Shown: piece after piece, positions 1-64,000 of the stretch
How the letters are laid out: every line of letters starts with the position of its first letter
Numbering within the stretch: position 1 is the first letter of the stretch
Source: Vittaforma corneae ATCC 50505
Lineage: Eukaryota; Microsporidia; Nosematidae
DNA: 64,000 nucleotides
Direction of reading: 5' to 3'
Assembly (NCBI RefSeq): GCF_000231115.1
Contig: NW_006889844.1
Location: forward strand, 9,006 to 73,005
The notes under the pieces: model-generated
Told to the model about the DNA's origin: nothing
The model's database searches: none
The model's input: the letters and a program-made list of their open reading frames with translations, nothing else
Made by a program: the position numbers and the translations under genes

Positions 1-468
1 TTAGCAAATTAAAAATGATGCTAATCTACTTATAAAATAATAAACAAAGCCATGCAAGCTTATTATCTAAAACAGATAGCCAGAAAAGAGATGACGTTCA
101 AGATTAGCACACGATCCATTTTGCTTTGAACCGCTGTTCTACTAGTGAATTAATAAGAATCATCATTTCACTAGAATTGCCAAAGACTTTAAGAATATTG
201 GAATTCAATTTTGCATTATGCTCCAAGTAAACGTACTTGAAGTATAGACAGATATGCTAAAACTATGAATAAGCAAGCTTATATTGACCGTAGAATGCGG
301 TTATAAAAGCCTTTGCTCTTAAAATCAAATATTATGCTTATATTGAAAAATTCCACCAATCTGATTTTTTTCTTTTTTCAATCTAATTGGAAATTAAACA
401 TGGGGAATTAATTGTAATAGAATATTTTTGTTTCAGATAATTATATATAGAAAAAAAACGAGTTGTTT
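1..468. other. Gene-poor left edge
   Basis: No reading frame with protein-like composition and no tRNA-like T-loop is seen here. The stretch is AT-rich, with a T-rich tract at about 361-380. It must hold the upstream region of the phosphofructokinase gene, but the CCC signal seen before most genes in this window is not visible before that start. Confidence 0.5.
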
Positions 469-3174
469 ATGAGGGGGTATATAGATGAGTTGGTAATTGA
501 AGATGATAAAGTGTCACAGGACACTGTGAGTTTATACGAGTCCCTTGGCCTCTTTGCTACACTAAACAATACCTCAATAAAGCTATGCAGCACCCGAGAC
601 ACGTATATAAAGTCATTCGATGGGAATTTGAGGTTATGCATTGGTAGAAAGCACTACGATGAAATCATGAATCAAAAGCTTATAGAAAAAAGAAAGGAGC
701 AAGATCAGACGGTAATCTACGATAACATTGGAACGGAGATTATATTAGAGGCAAAAAAGTCCTATTCCGATATCCGATTAGGTGTTTTAACAAGTGGGGG
801 CGATTCACCAGGAATGAATTCTGCAGTCCGAAGTATAGTGCGATACTCCTTAAAAAATAATATCAAAGTTTTTGGAATATATCGAGGCTTTGAGGGATTA
901 ATCAGAGGTGATATTAGAGAGCTAGGTTGGGACAATGAAACTCATAGTAGTGGCCAAAGTGGAACATATTTACTTTCTGCTAGATCCGAGAAGTTTAAAA
1001 CACGTAAAGGTCGAAAAGAAGCTGCATTTAATCTTTTAGTCAGGAATATTAATGCATTAGTGGTTATAGGCGGAGAGGGTAGTATGGAGGGTGCACTTAT
1101 TCTGAAAGAAGAATTCAAAGAATTGTGTGAGGAGATTATAGCAGAGGGATGGTTAAATTCTTCAAAGATAGAGACGATAAAGAACGAAAGAACATGGATA
1201 AAAGACTCACCACATAGTACAACACCAGTGGACAGTATATCACAATCAGATAAGCTAACTACTAAAAGTCTCAGCACAGAGAAAGTGGAGGATGTCATTG
1301 TTGACTATTTAGGACCCGAAGCTTCGGATGAATTTAATTTCAGCGTTAAAAAGCCATATGATATTCAGATAGTAGGCATACCAGGCACTATTGACAATGA
1401 CATTATTGGTACAGACTTTACTCTTGGCAGCAACACTGCAATAACTAGGGTGGCGGAGGTTGTTGAGAAACTAACATCAACAATGAGGTCACATAAGAGG
1501 GTATTTGTGTTGGAATGTATGGGTAGAAATTGTGGATGGATAACGCTAATGGCAGGGTTTGCAATAGGAGCGGAATATATCTTTATCCCTGAAGCACCCC
1601 CTAAAGACTGGAGATGTGAAATGATAAAATCGTTGAAAACAGCTTATTTTAATCACAAGATGAATATTTTTGTTTTTGTGTCAGAAGGCGCAATAGATTC
1701 AGAAGGTAATAGAATAACAACATCCGAAATTAAACAGGAGATCCGAAATGCAGGCATGGAAGTGCGTAGTTTAGTTCTTGGCCATGTCCAGAGGGGTGGG
1801 ATGACTGCTGCACAGGATAGGTTTTTGGGAACAGTGTTTGGATTGAAGATTGTTGAATATATAATGGGTGGGTCAAATATTCCCGTGATGGCTGCCAATG
1901 TCAGCGATGAATTTATTTTTGTAGATTTATATGAAGTTGTGAGAAAGTCCAAAATGGTGAGAAAATATTTTATCAAAAAGCGATATGATGAGGTATTGAA
2001 AATGAGAAATGAGTATTTTCAGCAAATTTATTGGATACATGAACGATATCGACACAGCCTGAGCCAGAAGTTTTTCAAAGAACACTTGTATCCCAGAGAA
2101 TATTCAATAGGCTATCTGCATGCTCACAACGAAAAGAAACTTGACAGTTCCAGCTTGATCTCAGAAAAGGTAGAGAAGCTATTTATGATAAAAAAAAGAT
2201 TAAGGATTGGTGTTCTAATGGAAGGACCTAGCTCAGGAGGGATGAACACTGTGCTAAATAGTTTAGTGCAATTTGGACTATGCAAAGACGTGGAAATTTT
2301 TTATTTTTTTAACGGTTATAATGGCATGATAAATGTTAATGTTAGAAAAGCCGATCTCTTTGAATTTTCCCTAGTTGATAACCAGGGTGGAATCATTATT
2401 GGAACATCAGACACAAAAAACGTAGACATCAATACTATTGAAAGAAGAATAGAAGAACTTCAGATAGACTATCTAATAGTAGTTGGTGGAACAGTAAATC
2501 TAAAGCTGGCACGTACAAATACTAAAATAATCATTATACCTTGTACCATATCAAATAATTTTCCCGGTTCAGATATGAGTATTGGAAGCGATACAGCGTT
2601 AAACGCAATTTTAATAGCTTCTGAGGCTTGTCGCCTGACAGCCATGTCGATAAAAAAGACTGTCTATGTAATTGAAATTGCTGGCGGAAAATGTGGATAT
2701 TTAACAGTTATTGGTGGAATTTCTTGCTCTGTCTTTGATGTAATCAGTCCAAAAGTCAATAAGCTTGAAGATCTAATTTTGACCAAAAAAAAAATCAAAA
2801 CCGCTTTAGAAAAGCAAGGAAGCAATTCTGTGATGATTTTCAGGAATGAAAGCACATTCGATTATATGACTACTGAAAGTCTCTGCAAGATACTGTGTTC
2901 GGATGAAAGTATTGCATATAACTACAGTGTGTTAGGCCACTTAGAAAGAGGTATATTGCCATCGGTATTGGATCGTATTCATGCACGATTGTCAGCGTAT
3001 AAAGCCATAGAAGTATGTTTAAACCAGGTTACCAGCGGTGTGATTGGAATATGCAATGGAAAGGCGATTTTCAGCTCAGTTGAGAGTGTTTTGAAAAATT
3101 ATGATGAGATGAATGATACTACAAAAAATCCCAAATGGCAAAAATATTCAACAATATGCTCACTAATGGAATAA
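469..3174 (+). CDS. PFK: 6-phosphofructokinase, fungal-type tandem-duplicated form
   Basis: Predicted to phosphorylate fructose 6-phosphate with ATP, the committing step of glycolysis, in the cytosol. The protein is 901 aa from the ATG at 469 (a longer frame begins only with a TTG). The N-terminal half has the ATP-binding GGDSPGMN at about residue 110 and the catalytic PGTIDND at about 305. The C-terminal half repeats the fold but has TISNNFPGSD at about 693, so both catalytic Asp are Asn; this half is probably regulatory, as in fungi and animals. The first 85 residues (with LYESLGLF) resemble a shortened form of the glyoxalase-like domain that precedes fungal PFKs. The two-half layout supports fungal descent. 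The stop TAA lies inside AATAAA. No CCC signal precedes the start. Confidence 0.93.
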   Translation: MRGYIDELVIEDDKVSQDTVSLYESLGLFATLNNTSIKLCSTRDTYIKSFDGNLRLCIGRKHYDEIMNQKLIEKRKEQDQTVIYDNIGTEIILEAKKSYSDIRLGVLTSGGDSPGMNSAVRSIVRYSLKNNIKVFGIYRGFEGLIRGDIRELGWDNETHSSGQSGTYLLSARSEKFKTRKGRKEAAFNLLVRNINALVVIGGEGSMEGALILKEEFKELCEEIIAEGWLNSSKIETIKNERTWIKDSPHSTTPVDSISQSDKLTTKSLSTEKVEDVIVDYLGPEASDEFNFSVKKPYDIQIVGIPGTIDNDIIGTDFTLGSNTAITRVAEVVEKLTSTMRSHKRVFVLECMGRNCGWITLMAGFAIGAEYIFIPEAPPKDWRCEMIKSLKTAYFNHKMNIFVFVSEGAIDSEGNRITTSEIKQEIRNAGMEVRSLVLGHVQRGGMTAAQDRFLGTVFGLKIVEYIMGGSNIPVMAANVSDEFIFVDLYEVVRKSKMVRKYFIKKRYDEVLKMRNEYFQQIYWIHERYRHSLSQKFFKEHLYPREYSIGYLHAHNEKKLDSSSLISEKVEKLFMIKKRLRIGVLMEGPSSGGMNTVLNSLVQFGLCKDVEIFYFFNGYNGMINVNVRKADLFEFSLVDNQGGIIIGTSDTKNVDINTIERRIEELQIDYLIVVGGTVNLKLARTNTKIIIIPCTISNNFPGSDMSIGSDTALNAILIASEACRLTAMSIKKTVYVIEIAGGKCGYLTVIGGISCSVFDVISPKVNKLEDLILTKKKIKTALEKQGSNSVMIFRNESTFDYMTTESLCKILCSDESIAYNYSVLGHLERGILPSVLDRIHARLSAYKAIEVCLNQVTSGVIGICNGKAIFSSVESVLKNYDEMNDTTKNPKWQKYSTICSLME

Positions 3175-3809: not shown

Positions 3810-4908
3810 ATGGTGACAAATAAAAAGTTTGATCCCAAAGACTACGAAGCGGCCTTTCTTTTTAATCACTTCCTAAACTCCTGCCATAGACAACAAAGAT
3901 TTGAGATGGTGGAGGACTATTACAATGCCGAGCCATTCGACTATGAAATGTACTGTGAGGATAATAGGGAAAAGTATAATAGAAAAGCAGTGGTGAGCAG
4001 ATTTAAAAATGAAGATTCGTCTAATTTTTTGGCAAGTCACTACCGCACAGACAAAAAGACAAAAAATCTGCCGAAGACAAGCCAAGCATTGAAAATTTTT
4101 ACTGATTCCAGGTCTCATTCAGCGCCAGAGGGACGCTTGAGCTTTAAAAATGGTGCTCATCAGACACTTTCAATACTCAAGCATAGGCCTTTTTTCATAG
4201 TTCAGGGTGAAAATTCATGCGCTAAAAAACAAAAAAGAACTTTAAAAGAGAATGATGCACAGTCTTACATAAAGTCACAAAATGTGTTTGATAGTTCAAA
4301 GATTATCTATTACAACGACATTGTTGATGTTATAAACCATAATTTTACAAATTGCTTTGTAAAAAGAGAAATAGCCAGTCCAAAACGAGAAGAGAGCGAG
4401 ACAGAAACTGATTGCAGCTCAGACTTAGCTTTACATGACAATAGGGAATATAGTTTAGAAGACAGCAACTGTTCTTCTGGCAATGAGCATGAAAATGCGC
4501 TATCTTCTGAGATGGCTGAGTCTAAGTCAAAGTGCCCAGAAGATGGTACTGATAATTACAGATTTGATGTTCAGGGCATCACAGATACAAATATACTGCA
4601 AAAGACGGATGAAGCTTTCAAAAAAGTGCTATTTGGGACATTCAAACATTTATATAAAAAAATTTGTAAATCCCAGTATGGACAATCAACGAAATGACAA
4701 CAACGATGATTTTGAAATTGAAGGTTTTAAGGACAAAACAAAGCAGAAAATTCTAGATTTATACAAGCCTGGTGAAGATGACGACCTTCCACCGCTTCTG
4801 CCGGGCGAGACCCCAGGGTTTATATGTGCTTTTTGCCACAGAAGGTATATTAAAAGACTTGAATTAGTCAAGCATCTTCATGATGTACACGCAGAAATGG
4901 ATGGATGA
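3810..4908 (+). CDS. C2H2 zinc-finger protein with a one-base frame break
   Basis: Unknown function. The first frame (3810-4697, 295 aa) starts with a KDYEAAFLFNHFL motif and continues as a charged, Ser-rich low-complexity chain. The frame one base over runs to 4908 and ends in a C-x2-C-x12-H-x4-H finger (CAFC...H LHDV H). Seven A at 4656-4662 mark the likely break: six A would give one 371-ish aa protein. The small protein at 9095-9325 has the same order, KDYE-type motif then a C-terminal C2H2 finger with identical spacing, which supports one gene. The alternative is a separate 76 aa finger gene starting at ATG 4678, overlapping the first by 20 bp; an AAATTTG...CCC signal just before 4678 favours that. 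The start at 3810 is supported by CCC at 3804-3806. Confidence 0.6.
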
Positions 4909-4943
4909 ATAAATTTATTGAGTAAAGCAAAATGTTTTTGTTT

Positions 4944-5208: not shown

Positions 5209-5240
5209 CTCATAAGAATATCAAAAACTTAGCAAAATTT

Positions 5241-8458: not shown

Positions 8459-9094
8459 TCCTTTGCGTTAGAAAATAATGGTTTAATACTTGAAACATTT
8501 GTTATACATACTGTAACAAATGATAGGAAACCCACTGTAATTATGTGATCTATGTTTAAGCATAATTAAAGATCACAAATTCTCTCAAACTGTCATATTT
8601 TACAATCAAGGCCATATATTTATATAAGCCCTTTCATACCTTTGAAAACCTCTCTACCTTTAATGATTGCTGAAGTTTGTTCAATACACATGAAACAAGT
8701 TAATATAGAAAATGCCCATTGATAGTTAGTTTTGGGCAGCACTAGTTTTTCCAGTTTGCAAAGTGTCTGCTGTTTTATGCACAGATCAACAACACGCGTA
8801 GTGCTAAAGTTGTTGAGGCCATAGCTGTGGGACATTCTTCTGGCAAGCCAGCCGTTTTAATATGCTGTATTGAGTCTTTTCGGACACAGCTGTGGAATTA
8901 AGCAAACAAACCTTGATAAACGCCAATGCTGTTTATCATTTGGGAATTGTCAAATTAACAGGGTGAGTTGCTTGCATTTCGTTTTCAGAGTGCTCATTAA
9001 AATTTTGAAAGAAAAATTAAAAATACAAAAAACCAAATGAAGTGAATTTAAACAAAAAGTCAGCCAAACATGGGCGTTTTTAATCAAGCTACGT
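8459..9094. other. 636 bp intergenic stretch
   Basis: No recognised gene. A 71-codon open frame (8620-8835, minus) has an ATG but no CCC signal, no domain and an unremarkable composition, so I do not call it. No tRNA-like B box was seen by eye. Confidence 0.4.
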
Positions 9095-9325
9095 TTATTC
9101 CACACTTCTGATGTTGTGGAGCCTCCTCAGATGGGAAATTAAGCTTCTTCTATAGACATATTCGCATCCGCAGTAGATGCATTTGTATTTATCCTCCGTA
9201 TTGCACAGAGAGTTGGTTATGGCATTGTTTAATGCCTTCGAACCTATTCTATCTGGCTTTTCTCTAACATTTCGTATAAAATACACAAACAATTTTGCAT
9301 CTTCATAGTCCTTAACGTTCACCAT
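9095..9325 (-). CDS. Small single C2H2 zinc-finger protein
   Basis: 76 aa, function unknown. The N-terminus MVNVKDYEDAKLFVYFIRN shares the KDYExAxLFxxF pattern with the protein starting at 3810. The C-terminus is one C2H2 finger, CIYC then 12 residues, H, four residues, H. A single finger is more likely to serve protein contact or assisted RNA/DNA binding than stand-alone sequence-specific DNA recognition; this is inference. CCC lies directly before the ATG (CAGCCCATG), which supports a real start. The gene stands alone between two long gaps. Confidence 0.7.
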   Translation of the reverse strand: MVNVKDYEDAKLFVYFIRNVREKPDRIGSKALNNAITNSLCNTEDKYKCIYCGCEYVYRRSLISHLRRLHNIRSVE

Positions 9326-10431
9326 GGGCTGAATAAAACTAATATTTATGTAACATCATATTTGTTTTACAATAAATCATAAGCTTAAAATTTTTAATAA
9401 TTGTTACATCTGTCAAATTCTGTTTGATATCATTTTTATCAATATTTAGCATTACAACTGCAATGCTGTCAAGTTTTTTGAAATGTTTGTTTGTTTATTT
9501 TTGAATTAAGAAATTAAAACTGTCAAAAAAATTAAAAATTTGACCAATTGATAATTACAAATAAAACCAAGAGACAGACCAACCATGTGCAAACAATGTG
9601 TATGAAAGTGCAGGAACACCCCTCTTTTTGTGCTAGCTCTTTTCCTGTCATTTTTTAAAACTTACATAGTGACAAACGTGCAAAAAGAAAACATGCAGAA
9701 ATGCTAGAATGAAAAATTTGGACACAAAACACAAACATTTAAGTGCATTTCATCACGCCTTTCAATTCAAAACAGTTTGGGCATTTGGTATTTCTATTTG
9801 AAGGAAATGTGTGATAGATCAGAAATTGAAGGCAGATTTAAGTGAAGTTTAAAGACGCGGCTCAACTACAATCAATAAGAATGAAATCAAATCAATTGTG
9901 CGGCTTAAACTCTTACCATTCAGTTTTTATGAAAAATTAAAAGAGATAGCCAGTAAAATAATCATGCAAAGAATTTAACCTCAAAGGCAACTGGCAGGGA
10001 ATTAAATGAGCACACAGTCCACCACCGAACTGCCTGTTTCAAATTCAATTGCTAATATTTTGATCACCCAACAATTGAATAAGAAGAAGCTTAAAATTCG
10101 GTTATTACACGTGGTTTCATGGCTATTTAAAAACCACCAGCATTACCATGCAAACCTAACCAACTGTTGAAAGCAGAGTATTTTTGGATTTTCAATGGCG
10201 TGCACAAACATGCAAAATTGATTTCCAACAAGCTCGCTGCTTCAAGTTTGCCAGGTGTAGCATCAGAAAAGACGCACATGATATTTAACAGCAGTGAAAG
10301 AGAAAAGACCTAATCGAGTTTGACAACTAAGGCTTTGATTTGTTTTCTTTGTTAAAAATTTTAGCTTTCAAATCTTGATTTAATCACTGATTTCAAGATT
10401 TCCTTAAACAACCTGGAACGGGCAAGTCCAC
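9326..10431. other. 1.1 kb gap, longest in the window
   Basis: No coding frame with protein-like content on either strand. It holds AT-rich tracts with AAATTT-like blocks (about 9523-9545: CTGTCAAAAAAATTAAAAAT then TTTGACC) and mixed-composition sequence at about 9550-10350. Such a large empty stretch in so dense a genome could hold a non-coding RNA, but I recognise no conserved RNA motif. Confidence 0.45.
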
Positions 10432-11391: not shown

Positions 11392-11395
11392 TTGT

Positions 11396-15031: not shown

Positions 15032-16796
15032 TCATTGCAGACATTCTTGTAAATTAAAAAGATATGTACCCACAAGTTCTCCCTTTGAATACTCACAGAA
15101 GTCGTTCAAAGCCCGAACCACTTCATCCTCATTCACGTTTCTGTTGCTAGTACCCTTGTCCACAAGATATCTTTCAAGACTGAAGAGCATCATCTCCGTC
15201 TTCTTAGCTCTTGTGTTAATGAATAGCCCTTTCATAATACTGTCCAGTCTTTTGTTGATGTTTTTCTTGAAAACATCAAAACAGAAGCTCTCAAAATCTG
15301 GAAATTCAATGGAAAAATTGCCAATAACCTCGTTAAACACGTAGAACTGCAATTTCTGAATAAAATTAAAGTATTTTAGTTCTCTCAGTCTTCCAGCCAA
15401 ATGCTCAATCTTTTTTAGTTTCCACAAGAACTTGAAAATATAAACCAGCTTGATAACGAATTCCTCTTCAATTAGGAGCGAAACTGGATAGTCCAGCTTT
15501 ATGTACAGAGAAAAGCTCTCGGAACCCTGGTCAGGCCCCAGCCCCACTCCTCGCGTCATCACTTTTAATAAATTCTTCTTGGGTAATATAAATATCAACT
15601 AGGGAGTTAAACGGAGACTTTGGAAAGATAGAATTCAATGCGTTTTCCAATAAATTGCAGATGTTTTTTCTTCCAGTTTTCCTGGACTCTTTCAGAGATG
15701 TGAACAGCTTTTCAATGAAGTCAATTCTACCAAAAAGAAAGGTAGAGTGAATAAATTCAAGAAGATCCAATATCTTAAAGTTCTCAAAGAATCCTTTGTA
15801 TAACAGTGTATTAATGCATACCAATGCATCCTTAAGATAGTTTACTGCACTATTTTTGGATAAATCAATCTTTCCTATCGTACTTTGAACTTCACGAGGT
15901 ATATTTAGAAGATGAACACTCTTCAAAAAGGCAGTGTACTTTCCGATATAAGCAATAGTTTCGGCGGTATGCCTTGAAATGAATGGAGGAATCAATCCGT
16001 AATCCAGGACATGATTTCTAATAAAGTACTCAGAAAATGGGTCTTCAAAGCTGCCATTTAGCAGATACGAAATAGTGCATTCATTGAACACCTGGTAAAG
16101 AACATCTTCGAAACCCTCAAAGAGAGGATTGATGGACGCCAGAGCGACATTGTCAAAGTTCAGGTCAAGTGCAGTAAAAGCCTTTAAGTGCATTTTGTTC
16201 CTGAAACTATCGTTTAAAATTCCCAACTTCCTAATGTTTTTGAAAGGAATATACATATTACTGTAGAAATCTAGAAAGTCACAGAATGATTCCAGGACTG
16301 ATTTTTCATAGTCTCTCAAAGAAGGCTGTATCTTTCCAAGAAAGTATCTGTGAGAAAGAGAATGTGGCTGTTCCTGCTCAATCTTTAACTGTCGGTATAT
16401 CAGTCCATGGGAATATACTGCATGAACAATGCTAAACACTGCATTGTTAACCTTTGATCTGATTGAAGGCAGTGAGACAGGATTGAAGTATGAAGTTTCA
16501 AATCCCAGGGCACCTTGTCTGAGATGAACTCTCAAATCTTCGTACACACTCGGCTTTTTGTTGCTTAGACAGAGGAACACATAGACCAGCTTTGTTATGC
16601 CTTCGTTGTTCGGCAGTTTTTTGTACAGAAGAAAAGCCTTTTCGGATTTTTCATTTAGGAATGAATCGATTTGAGGAGCATGAGTAGGCTGTGGAGTTAG
16701 ATACTTTGTTAGGGATTCGATGAAGAGATTTGAGGGTTCCAAGGGAGAGTAAAGGTTTCTGACGAGCCTATCCAATACTTTAGCAGTGCTAGACAT
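15032..16796 (-). CDS. Gamma-tubulin complex component (GCP2/GCP3 family), frame break
   Basis: Part of the microtubule-nucleating gamma-tubulin complex at the spindle plaque. The first frame runs 16796-15531 (421 aa) and holds the GCP core, including EDPFSEYFIRN and PPFISRHTAETIAYIGKY. The family's C-terminal part (SFSLYIKLDYPVSLLI, then the WKLKKIEHLAGRL helix) continues in the frame one base over to 15032. The frames overlap at 15531-15598. Removing one G from either GGGG run (plus-strand C at 15542-15545 or 15536-15539) gives 587 aa. The upstream frame ends GCC-TGA-C, which resembles a +1 shift site. ATG 16796 has CCC directly before it. I cannot tell Spc97 from Spc98. Confidence 0.8.
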
Positions 16797-17011: not shown

Positions 17012-20000
17012 TTATTTAATTTGACACACTTTAGACCTGTGATCCTGAATAAATACCTTAAATATTCTATTGGCATTATCAAACATGTTGTTCTTTAAAC
17101 TAACTACAATAAACTGTGCCCCATGAAACTCCTTCTGAATTATCTCTCCAATGGACTGTGTATAATTCAAATCGAGAGCTGCGTCAATCTCATCAAAAAT
17201 ATAAAAAGGCGCTGGCTTGAATGTAAGCATGCTAAATATCAGACACAGAGCTATCAAGGACTTCTGCCCACCGCTTAGCTCGCTGAGAGAGTTCTTCCAG
17301 TTTCCAACTTTAACCTTAATTTCAAATTCGGGTGAAATAAAAACATCTGAATTCTTTAAAAAATATCCTAGGAAGGTCCTGAGTGTCTTGTTGATGTGCT
17401 CAAAAGCCCTTTGATTCTCTTTCACACCCATCTCATTCAGCCTTTCAATGCTTTTTAGAATTTCTATCTTATCGCTTTCTAGCTTTCTTATTTTCTCTTC
17501 CAGGTCCTGAACAGCTGCTGCATTCTTCTCCAACAGCTCAAAGTTGGATGGATCCATGCTTACAACCACTCTTTTCTGATGGATCTTCTCTTTTAGAAAC
17601 CCCATCCTCTCTTCAATATACTTGGTATTTACATTGTCATTGTTGAACTTGAACAGTATAATTCTCTTTTCAACTCCAAAGCTTGCCTCCATAAATTCAA
17701 TATAGTTATCAGTAAAATTAGCTGGGACGATGCTGGCCAATCCCGATCCATTATGCTGTATCTGAGTGGATATATTCGTAAGATTTTCATTCATTTGATT
17801 TTGAAACACCTGGTTTGCCAATAATTTAATTTCGTCGTAGAGACGAGCAATTCTTGATGCAAGCTTGACAGTAGATTTGATCAAAACCTTTAGTTTTTCA
17901 TCAAGGCTCTCCATCATTCTAATGGATGCTCTTCTTGAATTCTCTTCCAACTCAAAAGCTCTTTGTCGTGACTGAAGTTGTGCAATTCTTTCCATCGACA
18001 AGGCAATTTGTTTTTCCAGATCATTTTTGATAACGGTAAGACCATCAATTTCATTCTTCAGCATTTCGCATTTGGCTTGTGCTGTACTCCTAATATTATT
18101 TTCCTTAGTAGCCTCCACTATCATATTTCTGACATTCTGTAACTCAGTCTTCACATCTATTTTTGACGTGGCCAGACCCTGTAGTATTTCAGCTTTGCTT
18201 CTCAAACTTGAAATATCTTTTGAAAGGCAAATGACATTTGAAAGCGAGTTGTAGATGCCCCTAAGCTCACATGCAATATTAAATTGGGGCATGTTCATTC
18301 TTAAGCATTCAACATCCCTTTCTAGTTTTTTAATATCCGACATTCTTGTTACATCATATTTGAAATATGACTTGCCACCTGTCAATGTACCTTTAGGATC
18401 ATACACTGTCCCGTCCAGAGTGACACATCCCACTTTGCATTCAAAACAACAAGTAGCCGCCTTTGCTTTATCTTCAAAGATATAAAATCCACTGAAAATG
18501 TGCTTGAAAGCCTTGTCATACTTCGTATTGAAACTTATTGCATCCAATGCATTTATACAAGAGTAGGGTACTCTATTTGGCTCCAAATAGGTTATTTTAT
18601 CCAACGGAATACAGGAAATTTTCCTATCACTCGTCTGGATTACCTTTGATGCGACCTCCTCATCTCTACAAATAACAAACTTGGATCTTCCACCTAGGAT
18701 AGTTAAAATAGCCTCTTTGTATTTCTGATCAACAAAATCAAAATTTTCATCAACTGTTCCATAGACACCCTCGATGATTGGATAAAATATCTTACTTTTT
18801 AAGGAGGAAATCTTCTCTTCAAAACTCCTGATCGTTGCATCCTTCAATTCGTATTCTTCAAGTAAATTTTTAACTATTCTCAACATTTCTTCAGAGATAT
18901 CTTCGCAGCATCCGTCCCTTGGCTTGATGTACTTTTTGATAGTTGAGCTTTTTATTTTGCTTTTCTACTTCAGAGCGTGCCATTTCTAGTTCTACTGTTT
19001 TCCTATTTAAAAACTCCTTCAATCTCTCAAGTTCCGCTATTTTATCAATGTCAGCTCCACCTAATATTTCCTTTGATAGGATATTTTCCCTCGCGCTTAG
19101 CTCGTTTAAATCAAACACAGGTGGTCTTTCCAAAATCCTTACGCCTTTTTCATATTCCTCCACTTTAGAATCAATTTGCTCTGATGGGTCCTGCCCCCTC
19201 AGCTCCTCCAGTCTATCCTTTTCAATATTTATTTTACCATTCAGGTCACTGGCATTGATGGCTTGCATTGTGCTGATTTCTTTTATTTTCATTTCCATAC
19301 TTTCCAGCTCCGCTTTTTCCTGAAAATACTGGACACCCATTCTATTCAGCTCTTCGACCTTTGAGGCTAGTTCAATGCCAGCCATTTGGTTTTCGAGAAT
19401 TTCCAGCTCCTGGATATATGCTTTTCTATTCACTTGACTGTCCCTGTTCTCTTCATATATCTTCTTTTCCTTTTTTAGCTCCTCAAAAAATGGGCTGATG
19501 GTCTTCTTAAGATGCTCTCTTGCTTCTTTTAGCTTGAATTCTTTCTTGGTTAACAGTTCTAGTGATTTTTCTCTTTCCAGGCTGTAGTTCCTAGTCCCCG
19601 CTGTTTCTTCAATCATACTTTGAAGATCCGCACTTTTCATATTTACAATCTTGGTTATGTGTCCCTGCATGACAATGAAGTCGTTTGTAATTCCAATGCT
19701 CTTGCACAGATTCTCGATAGACATCTTTGTTGAGTTATGTCCATTTAGCCTGTACTTGCTCTTACCCTCTGAATCAAGACTTCTGGTAATTTCAATGCAA
19801 TCGTAGCTTTCGTACCCGATGGGACTCTTGTCTTTCTCAGCATTGTCAAAAACATACTAACAGAACATTCTTTCCTGTTTATGTTAATTAGTTCTTTTAA
19901 GTTCGAGACTCTCATGTACTTGGAAGTGCTGAGATCAAGAGCGAAAATAATGGCATCAATAATATTGCTTTTTCCAGAACCGTTCATTCCAGTGATAGCC

Positions 20001-20083
20001 GTAAAGAATCGGTCTAAATTCTTTACAACCGTTTTGTCAGTGTAGCACTTGAAGCCGTCCATGATGACATCCTTAATGAACAT
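17012..20083 (-). CDS. SMC2: SMC2 condensin subunit, two frame breaks
   Basis: ATPase of the condensin complex that compacts mitotic chromosomes. ATG 20083 with CATCCC directly upstream. The N-terminus has Walker A GMNGSGKSN and SMC2-like MDGFKCYTDKTVV; a helical arm, hinge (VYGTVDENFDFVDQKYKEA, then GGRSKFVICRDEE) and second arm follow; the C-terminus has ELSGGQKSLIALCLIF and Walker B FYIFDEIDAALD. The frame breaks twice. At plus-strand AAAAA 19848-19852 one more base is needed to reach VFDN/FFDNAEKDKSPIGYE, the SMC2-specific segment. At TTTTT 18933-18937 one base fewer restores the join to the hinge. With both corrections the length is 1023 aa (yeast 1170). Two opposite-sign indels leave the overall length a multiple of three. 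Confidence 0.9.
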
Positions 20084-31615: not shown

Positions 31616-32025
31616 TCACCATTGTAGAAACTCGCCAGTTGCTGTGCTGTACGGAATGTCATAGTTGTCCAAATTTATAAATCCATTTTTAAAGCTGCAC
31701 TTCCATTTTGTCTTGGTCTTTGTTACTTTTGTAAAGAAACATACCATGTACACCCCGATCTGCCTCTCAAGCCGATCCAGGCGATCCTCCTCAGACAAAA
31801 GATCAGAATGCGAGTCTTCAAAGGATTCGTCCCGTTCCTGGAGCTCTGCCAAATCAGCTGTGTTTACAACAGGCTCAGATTGAAGCACTTCCAAGTTCTT
31901 CAACCACTCCCTCTGAATCGAGTAGGCCATGTCTCTGTCAATACTGTGCATAGGCCCTTCTTGTTCTAGCATAGTTCCTACCTGTCAATGATTTCATAAT
32001 ATGTTCTTTGGGCCTGTTCATTCAT
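31616..32025 (-). CDS. TOA1: TFIIA large subunit (Toa1), frame break
   Basis: General transcription factor IIA subunit that stabilises TBP on promoter DNA. From ATG 32025 (ACCCCAAAATG) the frame reads MNEQAQRTYYEIIDR and stops. The continuing sequence, LEQEGPMHSIDRDMAYSI and REWLKNLEVL, lies one frame over; yeast Toa1 starts the same way with a helix bundle. The C-terminal beta part RLERQIGVYMVCFFTKVTKT and KWKCSFKNGFIN matches Toa1's KVTRTKARWKCSLKDG. One more G at GG (31981-31982) gives 136 aa. The long spacer of yeast Toa1 (286 aa) is nearly all lost. TGAATAAA closes the gene. Confidence 0.88.
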
Positions 32026-37759: not shown

Positions 37760-38882
37760 ATGGATAAATTTCTTAAACTAGACGCAGAATTCACACAAGA
37801 TGCGAAGGTGTTCAAAAGAATAATGAGGAAAATTGTATTTAAAGACGCCATCACACTAGACTCGTATCTTTCTCTTATAAAACTTCCACTTTTCAAGAAA
37901 TTGCTATACAATGACTTTTACAAATCAGATGAGTTGAGGGCGAGCTACGAAGAAATCGTAAGAAAAGAGACAAGTGGAGTCGAGAAAATGATCTTTCAAC
38001 TTTTGTGCAAAAGACCTGTTGGATTCAAGGACATAAAGCTCAAGTTTCTCTTTTATAAAGAGTTTCCAGATCAAAGAGAATACTTTGTTAATGAAAACCC
38101 AACGGTAATCTTTGAAGCCCAGGATTTGCTGTTCAGACAGGTATATTTCCATGAAAACGTAAAGGGAAAAATGCAAAACCTGATCCAAAAATCTCCATTT
38201 AAACACAAAATATTTTTCATACTGGCAATGAAAAATTGCTTAAGCTTGAGTTTCATGAAAGACGTAATATTTAATATTAAGGAGCATCAAAGCCTGATTA
38301 GAAAAGAGTTTAATCTAAAAGACTCTGAGTTTTTCAAATACTGGGTCCTGGCCCTCAAATCATTGCCTGAAAAGGAGTTCTATGCAATAGTAACATCTGA
38401 AATGGTCTATTCACCCTTTATTGAAAAAATCCAATTGCTAAGGGCAGTTGAAGATTTGGTTAGCCATCAAAAACTAAGTTTGTGCATTCTAAAGGAATGC
38501 TTCAATTCTGAACTCCCAATAGTAAGAATCTATGTTGTGTTTCTAAAGATTACCGAGATGCTGTGTCTCGCATATGGATTTAAACTAAAGCTACTTTACT
38601 CATGGCTGAGATACTTCCTGTATGAAAGGCAGATCGATTTATTTTTTGATTTAATGGGGAAGCATGAAGAAGGCAAAGAAAAAAGACAGGGAATTTGAAT
38701 TTTACTGTGTTTTGGAAGGGTATCTGAAGGAAGAAGTGGAGTTTGACAGGGTTTTGGCATTGGCTGGTAGCATTGGGGATGAAAACCAGTTTTCAACCAT
38801 AACGATTGGCCAGATAGTTGAAAAATACAAAGTAAACGGCGAAGAGCAGAAAGACTGTATCCTACAGCAGTCTAACTCCTGA
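37760..38882 (+). CDS. Unknown helical protein, frame break
   Basis: Not recognised. ATG 37760 follows CCC by one base (CACCCTATG). 373 aa after correction, rich in Leu, Phe and Lys with many predicted helices, so a helical-repeat fold is plausible. The first frame ends at 38698; the second (38664-38882) continues as DREFEFYCVLEGYLKEEVEF. Six A at 38679-38684 mark the break: five A would join GKEKDREFEF without loss. The second frame happens to have an ATG at 38664, so a separate 72 aa gene cannot be excluded. Confidence 0.6.
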
Positions 38883-39083: not shown

Positions 39084-39553
39084 TCATTTTTCTATCTCAT
39101 CCGCACATTCACTTGCCTGATCGGGCCCTAAAGGCTTTTTGAGAAATGATTTAAGCTTCTCAAATTTCTCAACGTTAAATCCCTTGTAGCTATTCAGCAC
39201 ATCCTCTATTTTGTGGGTATTAACTTTTGATTCTCTTTTGTATTTGTCCTTCAGATTACTTCTTGTGCGATCTGGAAAAAGAAGATTCATAATTGAAAAA
39301 TCAAGGCCACAGCACTCCAAAGCACTGTAGAAAAGATCATTCTCCTCCCTATTCCATCTCTTTCTATTTCCCTTGTTCTTCATGTACGTATATGATGTCA
39401 CGATTTCTTCTTCAAAAGGCCAGGTGCATCTAAACTTATGACTATTTGGTCGTTCACGACCTGCAGTATGCTTTCCTTCTTTTTTTGGCGCTTCTGCGGC
39501 AGCTTTGTGAAATTTTTATTATCTAGAAAGTATTTCAAAGTTCTCTTTTCCAT
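39084..39553 (-). CDS. BDP1: TFIIIB subunit Bdp1, SANT domain, frame break
   Basis: Subunit of TFIIIB, which recruits RNA polymerase III to tRNA, 5S and U6 genes. ATG 39553 follows CCC directly (CACCCATGG). 156 aa after correction, against 594 in yeast: essentially the essential core. The first frame ends QIVISLDAPGLLKKKS; the continuing frame reads EEEIVTSYTYMKNK, then the SANT domain WNREENDLFYSALECCGLDFS and LLFPDRTRSNLKDKYKRESK, matching Bdp1's FPGRTRRQIKNKFKKE. One more base in AAAA (39414-39417) joins the frames. Confidence 0.88.
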
Positions 39554-45800: not shown

Positions 45801-46942
45801 TATTGCAGTTAATGATGCATTTCCAACAAATTTTGTCCAGGCAAAATGTGAAAATCTCTGACTTTCCAATTTCCATTGAACAAGTGAAGCTTGCCCTCAC
45901 TGAACGGAATTGTTAAACTAACAAGATTACGCTCGTTGGATTTTTGATAGACAAGAACATCCTGCTCACTTGATGTCTTCTGATTTGCGACGCTAGATTT
46001 ACGGTGCCAAACTCGATCAACCTCAATGTGTATGAGCTTCTTTTCCCAATATATTTGCAAAATTTTTACAATAATGTTTGGAGACCCGATATCTGGAACC
46101 AGCACATCAAGCCTGTATCCAGCAGAGGACATGCTCACATCTTTAACAATGACTCTCAGTGGTATGGGCATTGTAAAGTTTAAATGGAAGTTCTCGAAAT
46201 GTAGGTCGACATCTTTGATAAGCTTTGCTCCATGAAGAGGCATGAAACTCAGGACAACCCTATTATAGCATCTACCTTCGAACTGTACATTTTTGATGTC
46301 GAAGCTTTTTAATAAATCACACTTCTCAAGATTCTCCCTCGAACGTCTATCGGGCTGGACGTTTAAAGATTTGAAAAACTGATCAATAACCATGTTTTTA
46401 TCTTTAAATCCCGAATTTGCATTATTGTCCAAGAGCATCTGGTCAATTTTAAATAGCTTCTTATTTACAACAAATGTAAGGGGTATGAGAAGGAATCTTA
46501 GGCTTACAACCATGCTCAGCTCAAGAGTGATCTTTCGATTACTATTTAGAAATGCAGGAATTTTTGAAAAATCAATATGATTTAGTGCCACGGTTGAGTT
46601 AAACTCTATGTTTCCAAACTTATTGAGTTCAATATGACCAAAGCTCAGCTCGCATACGCTGTAGATCCCTCTTGGAGTTTCGATGCAAACACTAGCCGTT
46701 GAAGAATAAAAATCAATATAGAGGGGGGAAAAGGCATCGGATTTGAATGAAATCAAGCAGGAGCTATCTTTTGCTGAGTTGTATTTTAGATTTTCAATGT
46801 AGAAGTTAGAGCATTTCAGTCTGAAGATTGTAAGGGATATGAGGACTATTCTGTAGAAGAGCATGTAGAGAATAAAACTTGTTGCTGCACTCAAGGCATG
46901 CTTCCTAACTCTCTTAAGCTTGGTTTTCCAGATGCTACTCAT
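42865..46942 (-). CDS. Very large membrane-anchored protein of unknown function, frame break
   Basis: About 1358 aa after a one-base correction. ATG 46942 follows CCCCC (AATCCCCCCTTTCATGAG). Residues 20-40 form a single membrane anchor (SAATSFILYMLFYRIVLISL); the rest is beta-rich with alternating hydrophobic stretches and no obvious catalytic motif. An N-terminal anchor followed by a long beta-rich chain is the layout of bridge-like lipid transfer proteins (Csf1, Hobbit/Fmp27), but I see no diagnostic motif and do not assign it. The first frame stops near 45809 (EMHH end); the second is open from 45900 to 42865. A base too many in CAAAATTTG or GGAAATG, around 45810-45840, explains the join. 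Two overlapping genes is the alternative. Confidence 0.6.
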
Positions 46943-47384: not shown

Positions 47385-48842
47385 CTATTCCCTGAGAATG
47401 TATGCCTTGACACAGGGATTATCCGGAGTGCCGCAGTTACTATCGTTTAAAAATTCTCTATTTATGTCGTTTCTTAATCCAGGTTCCTCTTGTAATCCCA
47501 TGCCTTGTAACAGCCTCCTTAATCTATGCTCAATATTCTTATTTCCACCGCTTTTATTGCTTTTGGAGTCGTAATATGGTACATGCTTTCTATTCGAACT
47601 ACCGCTAGATCGCCTTTTCATGGCTCTTTCTGGAATTTGATCACTATCTGAGGGATCAAATATTTCATTTGATAATGGCAAGGCCCCATAGTCATCCTCC
47701 CTCTCGGGCACCAGCTGTATCAGCTTAGGCCTAACTGTGTCTAGTTTGCGGATGTTGGGTCTGGCAGATTTGGATTTCCTCTCGGGCGCTTTCGATGCAG
47801 TAGCAGTAACCGTGACTGTTCTTTCGAGCTGAACAGTGTTGGTTGCTGGTGAGCTTATTGTTTTGGTGATTGTCACTGTATTTTCTGGCTCTGCAGTGGT
47901 GCTTGAGGTGCGTTGCTGGCTCTTTGTGCTCGTACTAGCATCTGAAGTGGTGATGGTTTTTGTAACCGTCACTGTCGACGATATGGTTCTGTCAACTGGG
48001 GATGCAGTTACGACAACAATGGTCTGAGTGGAAGTAAATGCTGGACCATCCATACTAGCTGTTTTGGTTACAGTCAAGACCGAAGCAGGATGGTTCAAGG
48101 TCCTGAAGACAGTTGAGTATGCTAATGAGGATATTGGGACAAACGATGTTCTAATGCTTAGCCTTGTAATTTTTTGAGGGGATGCACTGTAAACAGGTTT
48201 GCTTGTGCTTTGAGCTGATGGAACCTGCATGCATTCATCGATTTTGAAACAGAAACTATTCGTTTCATATGGAAGACTATTAGCAAAAGCCCTATTGGGC
48301 AGTTTTCTGTTCATTAAATCGGGCTCTATTAGCTCGTCTACTGAATTGTACTGATTGGGTTCAGACTTATCATCTAAGCTTACGCTACTCTCAGGTTCGT
48401 TCTCTCCCCGCTCATCTATGTCCTTGCCAAATACCTGTACCCAAAATCTACTTCCTTTTTTGTCCAGACAGGTTGCTACACCTGTGTAGTTGAAGCCACC
48501 CATAATATTCTTTCTATGCTTGTCGCTTTTCATCCACATTTTGGCAACATCCTCATAGTTGTCACTGTGATTTTTAGCAATGTTTTCACCGATGGAAGAT
48601 CCTTTGAATCCATTTTTCTTTGCTCTCTCCTCTAAGTCACCACCTGGGTTGGTGTGAGTAAGGCTTGAATTCTCACACATATAAAGTGCTTGATCACGTG
48701 CTGCATTTTCCAAATTCTGGATCGACTTTAGATGCTTCAGCCCTTGGTCACTTCTATAGTTGTTGATTAGATTTAGCATGGAATGTGCAAGATTATTACA
48801 TGTGATTGAAGTGATGTATAGGAATATCAATGCATATGCCAT
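47385..48842 (-). CDS. Secreted CAP/SCP-domain protein with Ser/Thr repeats
   Basis: 485 aa from ATG 48842. A signal peptide is likely (hydrophobic YALIFLYITSITC). The CAP (SCP/PR-1) domain spans about 20-145: NYRSDQGLKHL, LTHTNP, GENIAKN, MWMKSDKHRKNIMGGF and RFWVQVFGKD are its signatures, with the cavity His and Glu retained. Residues about 225-350 form a Ser/Thr-rich region with repeated TVTVTKT-type units (LTVTKTAS, STVTVTKTITTS, NTVTITKTISS, RTVTVTATAS), which would be a dense O-glycosylation target. The tail is basic (RRSSGSSNRK, HRLRRLLQ). A spore-wall or extracellular role is inferred. No CCC precedes the ATG. Confidence 0.85.
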   Translation of the reverse strand: MAYALIFLYITSITCNNLAHSMLNLINNYRSDQGLKHLKSIQNLENAARDQALYMCENSSLTHTNPGGDLEERAKKNGFKGSSIGENIAKNHSDNYEDVAKMWMKSDKHRKNIMGGFNYTGVATCLDKKGSRFWVQVFGKDIDERGENEPESSVSLDDKSEPNQYNSVDELIEPDLMNRKLPNRAFANSLPYETNSFCFKIDECMQVPSAQSTSKPVYSASPQKITRLSIRTSFVPISSLAYSTVFRTLNHPASVLTVTKTASMDGPAFTSTQTIVVVTASPVDRTISSTVTVTKTITTSDASTSTKSQQRTSSTTAEPENTVTITKTISSPATNTVQLERTVTVTATASKAPERKSKSARPNIRKLDTVRPKLIQLVPEREDDYGALPLSNEIFDPSDSDQIPERAMKRRSSGSSNRKHVPYYDSKSNKSGGNKNIEHRLRRLLQGMGLQEEPGLRNDINREFLNDSNCGTPDNPCVKAYILRE

Positions 48843-49141: not shown

Positions 49142-50793
49142 TCATCTGTATTTCAGCGAGTTTTCGATAGCTTTTGAAATAACCTGGAAGGACGATTTTT
49201 TGCTATTTAAGCACTTCAGAACCAAGTAGTATTGCGAAAACAGTACATTAAAGTACAGAGTAACCTTAAAATAGCACTCCTCATCGTTGTTAAGGAACGA
49301 GCAGTAGTATCCATGCTCATCTGCTTCAAAAGCTATCGAGTTCTTTCTGAAAACATCCAAAATAATTTTTTTCAAGGCATTGTGCGATCCAATGTGTTTC
49401 ACCCTGATTCCCTGAAATACCCCTTTTATGTAGCTTTTATGGATACTTGGAAAGTTATGTTCAGTTTCTGCGTAGCCGAGCTACTTTCCTGGCTTGAATC
49501 TTGAAATGCGCCGGCAAAGAAGTATTTGGAAGGCCTCTGGGATGAACTATTTGAAAACACAAACATTACGAATTTGTGAAGCGTGTCGGTGATGCTGGAA
49601 GATCTATTGTCAAATCTCAGCAGACGTGTATTGACATTTGAATAGGCTCCTATGTTTTCTGAAAGAAGATAGTACATCGATATTATGGGATTTTTTGTCC
49701 AGTAGACAGTGTCCAAAGACTCTGTTTGCTGCTTGCAGATATTAAAAAAGCTTTCAAGATGCTCACTTGTATTTGAAAATTGAAATGAGAGTGCAGAGTG
49801 AAGTGCCTTGACATATTCGTTGTTTAGTTTTGCCAGTGGAAATCTTTTGCCCACGTAGCTTTCCACCTTAGATGAATATCCAGTATTTATCCACTTTGAA
49901 CCGATAATTTCAGGCAATGTAAATCTTTTTGCTACATCAGGCACGATCATATTTGATATCAGCTCTTGGGCATGCTTCGATAAAGAGACCGTGTACTCAA
50001 AGCTGGCCACTTTTATTTTGTTCTGGAGCTCTCGAACACTTTCGTCATCGAAAGGCACCTTTCCACACAGCATGACATATAGGATGACTCCAAGGCTCCA
50101 AATATCAACCTCAGGCCCGTTGTATGTATGGCCAAGAAGCAGCTCGGGTGCTGCAAAGTACAAACTTCCACAAAATGTTTTGAGAAAGTTCTTGTTATCG
50201 TAAAAATTCGACAGCCCAAAGTCGAGTAATTTTACGTTGTCGTTATGATCAATAATGATGTTCTCGATTTTAAGATCCCTATGCACTATTGAGTTTCGAT
50301 GGATGTAATCTATTGCAGAGAGCACCTGTCTAAAGTATTTTCTTGCCCGTTCCTCAGAGATCCTAGTTTCCTTCAGTATTATGTCGTACAGTTGATTGCC
50401 CTTAACATACTCAAAGACAAGGAAAAAGTACGAATCTGAATATAGAAAATCTAGCAATTTTATAATATGAGGATGGTCCAAAAGAACAGAAATAACCACT
50501 TCTCTGTAAATTCTCTCATCGTTGAAGCCTTCATTTGCAATATCTGTTGGATTTTGCGTCTTTAGCTCAAATCCTTGACCTTCTGGTGCAGGGCTTTCCT
50601 CCTTTTGTTTTCTTTTTACGATCTTGATTGCAGCTCTTCTTCCACTATTTTTATCAAAGGCTAGAACTACCTTTGCGGTACTCCCCGTTCCTAGCTCCTT
50701 GATTATAATGTAATTTCTAATTGAAACATTTTCAACGTATTCTTCGTCAGAGATGTGACCTGAAATGGAGCGGCCGTCTGTCTTTATGACCAT
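49142..50793 (-). CDS. Kin1/MARK-type protein kinase with KA1 domain, frame break
   Basis: Ser/Thr kinase of the Kin1/PAR-1/MARK group, linked in fungi to polarity and exocytosis. ATG 50793. Kinase domain about 25-300: glycine loop LGTGSTAKV, RAAIKIVKRK, HRDLKIENI, LLDFGLSNF, then a T-loop with FCGSLYFAAPELL. The first frame ends at 49426 with FQVSIKAT. The KA1 domain (GVFQGIRVKHIGSHNALKK then FEADEHGYYCSF) continues in the frame one base over to 49142. One more base in TTTT (plus-strand 49435-49438) joins them and gives 550 aa. KA1 domains bind acidic lipids at membranes. No CCC is visible before the ATG. Confidence 0.85.
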
Positions 50794-52175: not shown

Positions 52176-53596
52176 ATGACCTTTAAGACGAAGAGTTATT
52201 TAGACTCATTAATAGCAAAGTTCTATGGAAAGCAATCCAGTTTTATAACGGCCATATTGAACAATGACACAAGTTCTGCAAAAAAACTTGCTTTTGAACT
52301 TTACAAGGACCATCCTGCATATCTTCTGTTCTTTTGCTGTATTAACAGGGATGAGAACAGGCAGATCGTGTTGAATTTACTGGGAAGAAGCAAACAAATC
52401 GATCCTCACTTGCTATACTCACTGCTCAATTCAAAATCATACACCTATGATGACCTCAAAGCATTTATAGGTAATTTTAAAAGCGGCTCATTTATTGACC
52501 GCTGCATTGAAAAGGCAGCCTTTTTAAAGAAGCACGAACCATATCGTGGTACTAAGCCAGAAAATGGCTCATTTGATTCCGATGGCATAAGCTGTGAGCT
52601 AAATAAGCTTCTGGACGGGATTGACGATTTTCAATTGTATAAGTTTGCCATTGAGAACAGCATCGAAATCACGAAACGAAGCAGCTCTAACTACTTATGG
52701 TATATGCTAATAAAAGGATGCAATATCGGAGATACCTCAAAGGAGGCTGCTAAAGAGCTAATCCTAAGAACGACAAGCTTTCAAGAGATCAAAAGAATAC
52801 TAAGCTATTACAGAGTTGAGGAGGTTGGCGATGATCGGTATGACATCATCATCAGGTACCTAAGCAACGGATTTTCTACCGATCTATTACGGCAAGCCTT
52901 TGCTCTTCTCAGTAAGGATCAATCATTTATTACAGTCAAAATCGTTCTTGCGCTTCTCATTGCCTCCAAAAACGAAAATCTTGTTGTCCTTGCACTATAT
53001 TTATCACAAAAGTACCATTTTGAGACAAATTATGAAATCGCACTGGTTAACCTGCATTTATGTAGATATTTTCTGCTGTTAAAACAGTTGCTGTAAAAAT
53101 AGAGGAGCTAGACATAAAAAACATCCAGCAGCACAATCTTGCGTATCTTTGGAGCGATCCCATGAATGTCTTAAAAGTCAGGCTGAATAATCACATAAAA
53201 ACATTTCAGAGCGAAGTTAAAAACGAGATTGACGGAACGGAAGTTATGATTAGAAAATTCATAGACAGCAATTTGATTGCCAGTGCCGTTTCCTGCCTGG
53301 AACTGAGATCTAGTTTGGTTAATTCTGTTATTTGCAGTGAAATTAAACAATTAAAAATCAAGTCAATAGATCCCCAGACTATGTTTTCAGAGCTGCTTGG
53401 GGAAGAATGTAGATATATTTTTGATAAGATAACGGTTTCAGATCGTAGAAATCCGAGCGGATCGGTAAACACTCTTAGATCAGTGGCTGACCAACTGTTT
53501 TCAGATAGAATATATGAAAATGAGTTTATGAAAATAGCAGATCAAAATTTTATTACAGATTTCGAAAGATCTATATCCAAAAAATCAAGTAAATAG
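52176..53596 (+). CDS. MDM20: Probable NatB auxiliary subunit Mdm20/Naa25, frame break
   Basis: NatB acetylates nascent proteins starting Met-Asp/Glu/Asn; Mdm20 anchors the catalytic subunit to the ribosome. ATG 52176 follows CATCCCAGTG. The protein is alpha-helical throughout. The segment LHLCRYFSAVKTVAVKIEELDIKNIQQHNLAYLWS reads across the break and matches the family's core (LLGAFS..A...Y..LDIKNIQLDTLSYL). The first frame ends at 53096; the second runs to 53596. One more T in TTTT (53069-53072) joins them at RYFSAVKT and gives 473 aa (yeast 796). The assignment rests mainly on this one segment. Confidence 0.6.
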
Positions 53597-61887: not shown

Positions 61888-61893
61888 TGGTGG

Positions 61894-61922
61894 GCAAGAA
61901 ACGAAAAATTTTAAAAAATTTT
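61894..61922 (-). promoter_or_regulatory. Double AAATTT box plus CCC before L3
   Basis: On the minus strand AAAATTTTTTAAAATTTTTCG precedes GCCCACC and ATG 61887; on the plus strand the block is AAAAATTTTAAAAAATTTT at 61904-61922. This is the third of three ribosomal protein genes in the window with the same signal. Confidence 0.72.
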
Positions 61923-61994
61923 GCACTTTGAAACTAAAAACAAATTCGATGCGCCACTTGAATGTTATATTTAAAATGCAAAGCCATAAATATT

Positions 61995-62888: not shown

Positions 62889-63194
62889 ACTCCAGACTGG
62901 GAAAATTTTGAAAATGTAAAATGCTTCGAGTATATAATCAATCACACAGATAATATTACAGAAAGCACAATCTTGTGCTGCAGTATTTGTGATACTGGCT
63001 GGATGTAATATAGAACAGTCAGGTATGCCTTTGTGATAACACCACAATGACAAATCTTTGTTAGTTCTTTTCAGTCGAATTGCTTTATTTAAATAAAAAA
63101 TCGTATGAAAGAGTGTCTAGCTGATTGCAAGTTCCATATCCTTTGTATATAGTTTGAATTAAACAGCATGGCTAAGTAAATCAAAACTTCCATT
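62889..63194. other. 306 bp divergent intergenic region
   Basis: No gene recognised. It separates CK1 and Sly1, read in opposite directions. Confidence 0.4.
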
Positions 63195-64000
63195 ATGTCT
63201 GACATTCTTGCAAAGATTCATCCCCAACATAAAATGCTGAGATCTCTCCAAAAACAAAAACTAGTAAAAATGTTAAGCCCAGAAAACCCACCATTCAAGA
63301 TTCTAATTCTGGATAGTGCTACCCAAGAAATTCTGGGCCCAATATTGAAAGTTTCTGACCTGAGAGATGCAGGCGTAACTGCACACTTTTTGGCTTCTAT
63401 GTCGCGGTCACCAATAAAGGATGCTCCTGCTCTTTATTTTGTAAGCTCAGTAGAGTCGATAGAAAAAGACCTGAACAGAGATTTGTACGGCTCGTATTAC
63501 ATCAACTCCTCATTTGCCTTTAAAAGAAGTGATTTGGAGAAGATGGCTGCGGTGGCCAGTGGAAAGCAGATTGCCTTGAAAATCCAGTCCGTGTTCGACC
63601 AATTCCTCCAATTTATTTCACTTCAGGACGACCTGTTTACCCTAAACATCACAAGTAGCTTTACAAATAGAAATACAGATGCCTTTCTAAGACGTTCGGT
63701 CTCGGGATTGATGAGTGTGTTTTGCACCTTGAACGAAGTGCCGTTTATTATTTCAAAAGAGTGTGAGTTGGGGAAAATGCTTGAGCAGAAAATTAAAAAC
63801 ACAAAAATAATCAAAGGCGGAATAAAGAAGCCTCTTCTTATCATTCTGAACAGAGACTTTGATGTATCTACGCCCACAAAACACGTTATGGGATATGTAG
63901 AGCTAATTCACGACATTTTTAATATTAAGTTAAATAAGGCAGAGAACATTAACATCGACACTGATTGCGAATTCTACAAAACAAACATGTTCTTGGATTT
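63195..64000 (+). CDS. SLY1: SNARE regulator Sly1 (Sec1/Munc18 family), partial
   Basis: Controls ER-to-Golgi SNARE assembly with the syntaxin Sed5. Only the first 268 codons lie in the window; the gene runs past the edge. ATG 63195. Seen: FKILILDSATQEILGPILKVSDLRDAGVTAHFL, PALYFVSSVESIEKDLNRDLYGSYYINSSF, FLQFISLQDDLFTL and KPLLIILNRDFDVSTP. VYFV-type YFV, DLYGSYYINF and QFISLEDDLF fit Sly1 better than Sec1, Vps33 or Vps45. No CCC is visible before the ATG. Confidence 0.92.
   Translation, partial: MSDILAKIHPQHKMLRSLQKQKLVKMLSPENPPFKILILDSATQEILGPILKVSDLRDAGVTAHFLASMSRSPIKDAPALYFVSSVESIEKDLNRDLYGSYYINSSFAFKRSDLEKMAAVASGKQIALKIQSVFDQFLQFISLQDDLFTLNITSSFTNRNTDAFLRRSVSGLMSVFCTLNEVPFIISKECELGKMLEQKIKNTKIIKGGIKKPLLIILNRDFDVSTPTKHVMGYVELIHDIFNIKLNKAENINIDTDCEFYKTNMFLD

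What the first reader, a model, noticed from the sequence alone, without database searches (positions are those of the whole stretch)
1..64000. Single-base frame breaks in about a dozen essential genes
I see frame changes inside genes at about 4656, 5030, 15540, 18935, 19850, 25885, 31981, 38680, 39415, 45825, 49436 and 53070. Most fall at a run of identical bases, and after one-base corrections every affected gene is a whole number of codons with homology continuing across. The affected products (SMC2, Toa1, Bdp1, Sam50, gamma-tubulin complex) should be indispensable. Either the consensus has indel errors, or this organism reads through slippery runs.
Basis: partly seen in the sequence, partly recalled or inferred. 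Interest (0 to 1): 0.75.

Follow-up and report, generated by a model that had tools for sequence, protein, structure and literature searches.

The report
Frame errors in a draft parasite genome
The broken reading frames are really in this published draft sequence of a microsporidian parasite, but they look like ordinary single-base sequencing or assembly mistakes scattered over the genome, not a new way of reading genes.

Summary
The window belongs to the Broad draft genome of the microsporidian Vittaforma corneae ATCC 50505. Toa1 and Bdp1 rest on weak homology; the site at 5030 has no coding signal in any frame.

The suggested biology is not supported. Breaks also occur in other contigs. Extra and missing bases are about equally common (9 and 11 of 20 core calls). 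Against 27 frame breaks there are 0 in-frame stops. Two broken genes are about as conserved as an intact one, and relatives read straight through. The claimed excess at homopolymer runs is weak or absent; Sam50 breaks where no run exceeds two bases.

The deposited SMC2 model crosses its two breaks with GT..AG gaps of 26 and 10 bases, in a lineage reported to have lost or reduced splicing (PMC4435813). Best explanation: consensus indel errors in an older draft, probably pyrosequenced. Raw reads, which I did not have, would settle it.

The parts
4459..4694 (+). interval holding a frame break in an unnamed gene modelled at 3810-4905
   Evidence: coding model; longest run 7
15534..15598 (-). interval holding a frame break in a gamma-tubulin complex component
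   Evidence: coding model; GCP_N matches the upstream piece, GCP_C the downstream piece
18940..18959 (-). second frame break in SMC2
   Evidence: coding model; placed against one relative, P0122
19850..19858 (-). first frame break in SMC2
   Evidence: coding model; placed against four relatives
17015..20083 (-). SMC2 gene; the deposited model VICG_01284 jumps both breaks with GT..AG gaps of 26 and 10 bases
   Evidence: block mapping of P0121; identity
25878..25897 (+). frame break in Sam50 (25881-25886 with two of four relatives)
   Evidence: no run longer than two bases in the allowed interval
31978..31984 (-). possible frame break near the start of Toa1; weak
   Evidence: frames read by eye; downstream piece is TFIIA; weak match of the read-through; not called by the model
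38655..38695 (+). interval holding a frame break in an unnamed gene modelled at 37760-38879
   Evidence: coding model; no homolog found
39398..39515 (-). possible frame break upstream of the Bdp1 core; weak
   Evidence: downstream piece matches TFIIIB B''; upstream piece matched nothing; not called by the model
45812..45912 (-). interval holding a frame break in an unnamed gene modelled at 42868-46942
   Evidence: coding model; no family match on either side
49429..49480 (-). interval holding a frame break near the C-terminus of a protein kinase
   Evidence: coding model; kinase domain on the upstream piece only
53066..53093 (+). interval holding a frame break in an unnamed gene modelled at 52176-53593
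   Evidence: coding model

Best explanation
The breaks are single-base insertion and deletion errors in the consensus of a draft assembly of Vittaforma corneae ATCC 50505; the living cell most likely has intact genes and reads them normally. Shown: the breaks are in the deposited letters, occur in most contigs sampled, go both ways, come without nonsense changes, and (for SMC2 and Sam50) are absent from relatives and lie in normally conserved genes. Inferred: that sequencing or assembly caused them, and that the platform was 454 with Newbler, as reported for Vavraia culicis and Edhazardia aedis in PMC4435813; I found no statement of the platform for this strain.
For: 27 frame breaks against 0 in-frame stops, with 50 of 60 planted frame breaks and 36 of 60 planted stops recovered. 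18 calls outside the window in 134,831 coding bases, against 9 in 50,265 inside. Both directions, 9 and 11 of 20 core calls. Identity to the nearest relative is 79.6, 77.6 and 79.9% in the three SMC2 pieces and 87.0 and 85.8% in the two Sam50 pieces, against 85% for the intact E1 gene. The 32 next SMC2 rows (P0122-P0153) are 943-1063 aa, and 21 of 21 Sam50 rows are 315-360 aa. The deposited SMC2 model crosses the breaks with 26- and 10-base GT..AG gaps. [quoted passage not shown] 58 such joins in the 454 draft of Nosema ceranae (PMC2685015, passages).
Against: No raw reads seen. 454 errors are reported to favour longer A/T runs (PMC3277595, passages), but the run excess here is weak (one of several tests at P 0.025, the rest above 0.05), and Sam50 breaks outside any run over two bases. 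So the exact error process is open. The protein search admits only lengths of 0.55 to 1.75 times the query, so broken short relatives could be missing from the lists, and the rows P0154 (702 aa) and P0155 (819 aa) are shorter.
Confidence: 0.9

Rival explanations
1. Slippery-run decoding: the indels are real in the DNA and are corrected by polymerase slippage or ribosomal frameshifting.
For: Runs of 4 or more lie in 17 of 20 core intervals; the genes look needed and conserved.
Against: 17 is near the 13.7 expected (P 0.054). Both directions occur. Sam50 has no run over two bases. The longest run in any allowed interval is 7. Relatives have single-frame proteins of full length. In SMC2 break A the old frame stays open well past the break, so the shift is not at a stop codon.
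Confidence: 0.02
2. True indels in the sequenced culture: pseudogenes, or broken alleles of a diploid line beside intact ones.
For: V. corneae is listed as diploid (PMC12558613, passage), so a broken allele could be carried; an ATCC culture line may drift (inference).
Against: 0 in-frame stops beside 27 frame breaks; identity of SMC2 and Sam50 like that of an intact gene; 18 of 180 modelled genes affected.
Confidence: 0.06
3. Very short spliceosomal introns, as the deposited SMC2 model implies.
For: Both gaps in the deposited SMC2 model have GT..AG ends.
Against: A 10-base intron is shorter than any I know of (recalled). The 26-base gap removes residues that relatives keep and that the window encodes in the other frame. 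PMC4435813 (passages) infers loss or reduction of canonical splicing in the ancestor of Ent. bieneusi and V. corneae. No Prp8 U6-binding domain and no U6 match in the genome held; weak, because the controls of those searches rang nowhere either.
Confidence: 0.01

Closest known systems
Artificial frameshifts in 454 drafts of low-G+C genomes (PMC3277595) and in the Nosema ceranae draft (PMC2685015)
   Same: Single-base frame breaks in many genes of an AT-rich draft; 20% or more genes reported possible, 8 of 44 modelled genes in this window and 18 of 180 in all
   Different: The platform for this strain is not known to me, and the expected run bias is weak here
Frameshifts, sequencing errors or pseudogenes missed in other microsporidian annotations (MicroAnnot, PMC10815200, passages)
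   Same: Same phylum and same kind of annotation problem: 121 cases in N. ceranae and 43 in E. bieneusi in its table
   Different: V. corneae is not one of the four genomes in that table
Euplotes +1 frameshifting (PMC5009743, passages)
   Same: Many genes with a frame change
   Different: There the shift is at a stop codon and in one direction; here both directions, and SMC2 break A lies away from the stop
Slippage in Buchnera and Blochmannia (named in PMC5009743, passage)
   Same: AT-rich reduced genome of an intracellular organism (recalled)
   Different: That needs long A runs (recalled); the longest run in any allowed interval here is 7

Membership tests
Consensus sequencing or assembly errors | Raw reads disagree with the consensus at the sites | not testable with these tools
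   no reads available
Consensus sequencing or assembly errors | Breaks spread over the genome, irrespective of gene | tested here: met
   breaks called in 9 of the 11 regions with modelled genes, the window included
Consensus sequencing or assembly errors | Indels without nonsense changes, in normally conserved genes | tested here: met
   27 against 0; conservation tested for SMC2 and Sam50 only
454 homopolymer errors | Excess at homopolymer runs | tested here: inconclusive
   P 0.025 to 0.69 over the measures used; Sam50 outside runs
Programmed ribosomal frameshifting | One direction and a common shift site | tested here: not met
   9 extra and 11 short; shared motif judged by eye only, none seen
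Programmed ribosomal frameshifting | Break conserved in relatives | tested here: not met
   full-length single-frame relatives for SMC2 and Sam50; other genes not tested
Transcriptional slippage at long A or T runs | Long homopolymer at each site | tested here: not met
   longest run 7, most intervals 4 to 5, Sam50 two
Spliceosomal introns | Spliceosome present | tested here: inconclusive
   no Prp8 domain or U6 match, but no working control; literature passage
Pseudogenes | Nonsense changes and relaxed conservation | tested here: not met
   0 in-frame stops; identity like that of an intact gene for SMC2 and Sam50

The most novel reading that the evidence does not exclude
Some breaks, for instance those outside runs such as the one in Sam50, are true in the DNA of this strain and are compensated during gene expression in a microsporidian that has lost or reduced splicing, which would be frequent frame correction in a eukaryote outside the known cases.
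Probability: 0.02. Interest if true: 0.85.

Novelty: not a real feature. Interest (0 to 1): 0.1.

Why it matters
As biology it is probably nothing, but it is a caution for users of this draft. A core frame break was called in 18 of 180 modelled genes sampled. One deposited protein (SMC2) lacks conserved residues because its model jumps the breaks with implausible micro-introns. For Sam50 the protein search listed no deposited V. corneae protein (21 rows). Counts of lost genes, short proteins or introns taken from such drafts can be wrong. If any break proved true in the DNA, frequent frame correction in a microsporidian would be a surprise.

Tried and rejected
Homopolymer runs as sufficient explanation: tested by resampling intervals of equal length from unbroken genes; weak or absent.

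Programmed frameshifting at a slow stop: the old frame at Sam50 ends in a TAG-GAA context, and by eye the Toa1 site does too. The two shifts seem to go in opposite directions and none of the other 19 core contexts shares it; rejected as chance.

Break at 5030: no coding signal.

Searches without result: solved structures for the two gamma-tubulin complex pieces, the kinase tail and the upstream Bdp1 piece; ARAGORN and Rfam on the window. The zero false breaks in 99 unbroken genes is circular, since those genes were chosen as unbroken; the synthetic-gene test stands in for it. Paper searches: microsporidia with 'ribosomal frameshifting' (23 papers, 20 listed) and with 'transcriptional slippage' (2 papers); by title and abstract start none is about frame changes in microsporidian genes. 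The review PMC5009743 does not hold the word microsporidia in the part of its text that is held. 'Vittaforma corneae' with 'genome' and '454' (12 papers) gave no statement of the platform in the titles, abstract starts and passages that I saw (passages of PMC3879972 and PMC2685015, and of PMC10815200; the other nine listings only).
Full report
Source. The window is G000:C11:9006-73005 of a 2.90 Mb, 35-contig genome. Its ubiquitin-activating enzyme gene is intact; apart from the window's own protein the nearest is 85% identical, from an unnamed assembly, and the first named relative is Glugoides intestinalis at 65%. The largest SMC2 piece matches VICG_01284 of Vittaforma corneae ATCC 50505 at 100% over 98% of the piece, on a contig of the same length (89,840 bases) as that of the window's own E1 protein. 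The best solved relative of its ribosomal protein L3 is 7qep_L3, which I recall to be microsporidian.

Observation. I trained a three-periodic fourth-order coding model on 117 long open frames of the window and the fetched stretches and ran it with states for one extra or one missing base. In the window it gives nine breaks in 8 of 44 modelled genes, the same nine for penalties of -8, -10 and -12. Controls: 50 of 60 planted indels found, all 50 with the right direction; 1 false break in 128 synthetic intact genes; none in the reversed window, of which only 2,547 bases were called coding. The Toa1 and Bdp1 sites were not called. Their downstream pieces are TFIIA and TFIIIB B''; for the upstream parts there is only a weak colinear match for Toa1 and none for Bdp1. 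The site at 5030 lies where no frame looks coding.

Placement by homology. The nearest SMC2 relative (P0122) and all four Sam50 relatives tried align to the window in pieces in different frames. At the second SMC2 join and at the Sam50 join the residues of these relatives run on without loss; at the first SMC2 join the pieces overlap. Scoring all positions puts the breaks at 19850-19858 (four relatives) and 18940-18959 (one relative) in SMC2, and at 25881-25886 in Sam50 with two of four relatives, 25878-25897 over all four. The SMC2 intervals touch runs of up to five A or T; in the Sam50 interval no run is longer than two.

Runs. In this AT-rich coding sequence an interval of the size allowed by the stop codons usually holds a run of four anyway. 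Against equal-length intervals from unbroken genes the mean longest run is not raised: 25 of 27 calls P 0.30, window P 0.21, 20 core calls P 0.37, ten core calls of at most 60 bases P 0.46. Runs of four or more: 21 vs 16.5 (P 0.025), 17 vs 13.7 (P 0.054), 7 vs 5.0 (P 0.16); runs of five or more: 8 vs 8.6 (P 0.69). A modest run bias is neither shown nor excluded.

Spread. Outside the window 18 further calls fall in 134,831 coding bases; the rate per region runs from 0 to 6 per 10 kb on small numbers. Dropping calls within 60 bases of a gene end and one compensating pair leaves 20 core calls of 27 (9 in the window, 11 outside) in 18 of 180 modelled genes, 9 extra and 11 short. Broken genes elsewhere include a proteasome subunit, two DEAD-box helicases, a Sof1-like WD40 protein and an SMC-family gene. 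For the proteasome subunit, one helicase and the Sof1-like gene both pieces match the expected domains; for the other helicase only the upstream piece matched, and for the SMC gene only one piece was searched.

Errors or decay. A model that may also read through stops gives 27 frame breaks and 0 in-frame stops; it recovers 36 of 60 planted stops. Decaying genes should show nonsense changes too. SMC2 and Sam50 are about as similar to their nearest relative on both sides of the breaks (77.6-79.9% and 85.8-87.0%) as the intact E1 gene is to its own (85%). Conservation was tested for these two broken genes only.

The deposited annotation. VICG_01284 maps to the window as residues 1-75, 77-375 and 376-1011, with 29 and 10 bases between the blocks; the first is a 26-base GT..AG stretch plus a split codon, the second a 10-base GT..AG stretch. 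The first drops residues that relatives have and that the window encodes in the shifted frame. PMC4435813 (passages) infers loss or reduction of canonical splicing in the ancestor of Ent. bieneusi and V. corneae, and reports 454 GS FLX Titanium with Newbler for Vavraia culicis and Edhazardia aedis. My own searches for a Prp8 domain and U6 RNA found nothing, but their controls found nothing either. PMC9960886 (passages) notes that 207 of 2034 hypothetical proteins of this proteome are labelled fragmented or partial. Cuomo et al. 2012, cited for this genome by PMC3879972 (passages), is not held, so the platform is an inference.

Precedent. [quoted passage not shown] The N. ceranae draft joined 58 pairs of frames by assuming single-base errors (PMC2685015, passages). 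MicroAnnot lists 121 and 43 missed frameshifts, sequencing errors or pseudogenes in N. ceranae and E. bieneusi (PMC10815200, passages).

Verdict. The breaks are present in the letters, and nine of twelve stand on a test that did not use the list. What was measured fits random consensus indels; slippery-run decoding is not supported. Without reads I cannot prove the origin of any one site, and the weak run bias leaves the exact error process open. Interest is low.

Noticed in passing
17015-20083 (-): The deposited SMC2 protein (VICG_01284) is built over two implausible micro-introns of 26 and 10 bases and lacks conserved residues; other deposited models of this genome may hide breaks in the same way.
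   Followed up: yes
L011:1759-4412 (-): Two neighbouring genes on contig 1 begin with nearly identical protein sequence, as after a recent tandem duplication; a frame break was called in each, the second at a gene edge.
   Followed up: no
L028:1-10000: The first 10 kb of contig 10 hold no modelled gene and have 28% GC, unlike the other fully readable stretches; perhaps a chromosome end or repeats.
   Followed up: no
8459-10431: About 2 kb with a single small modelled gene on the minus strand (9098-9325), long for a compact genome.
   Followed up: no
47385-48842 (-): An intact frame with a CAP (cysteine-rich secretory protein) domain.
   Followed up: no
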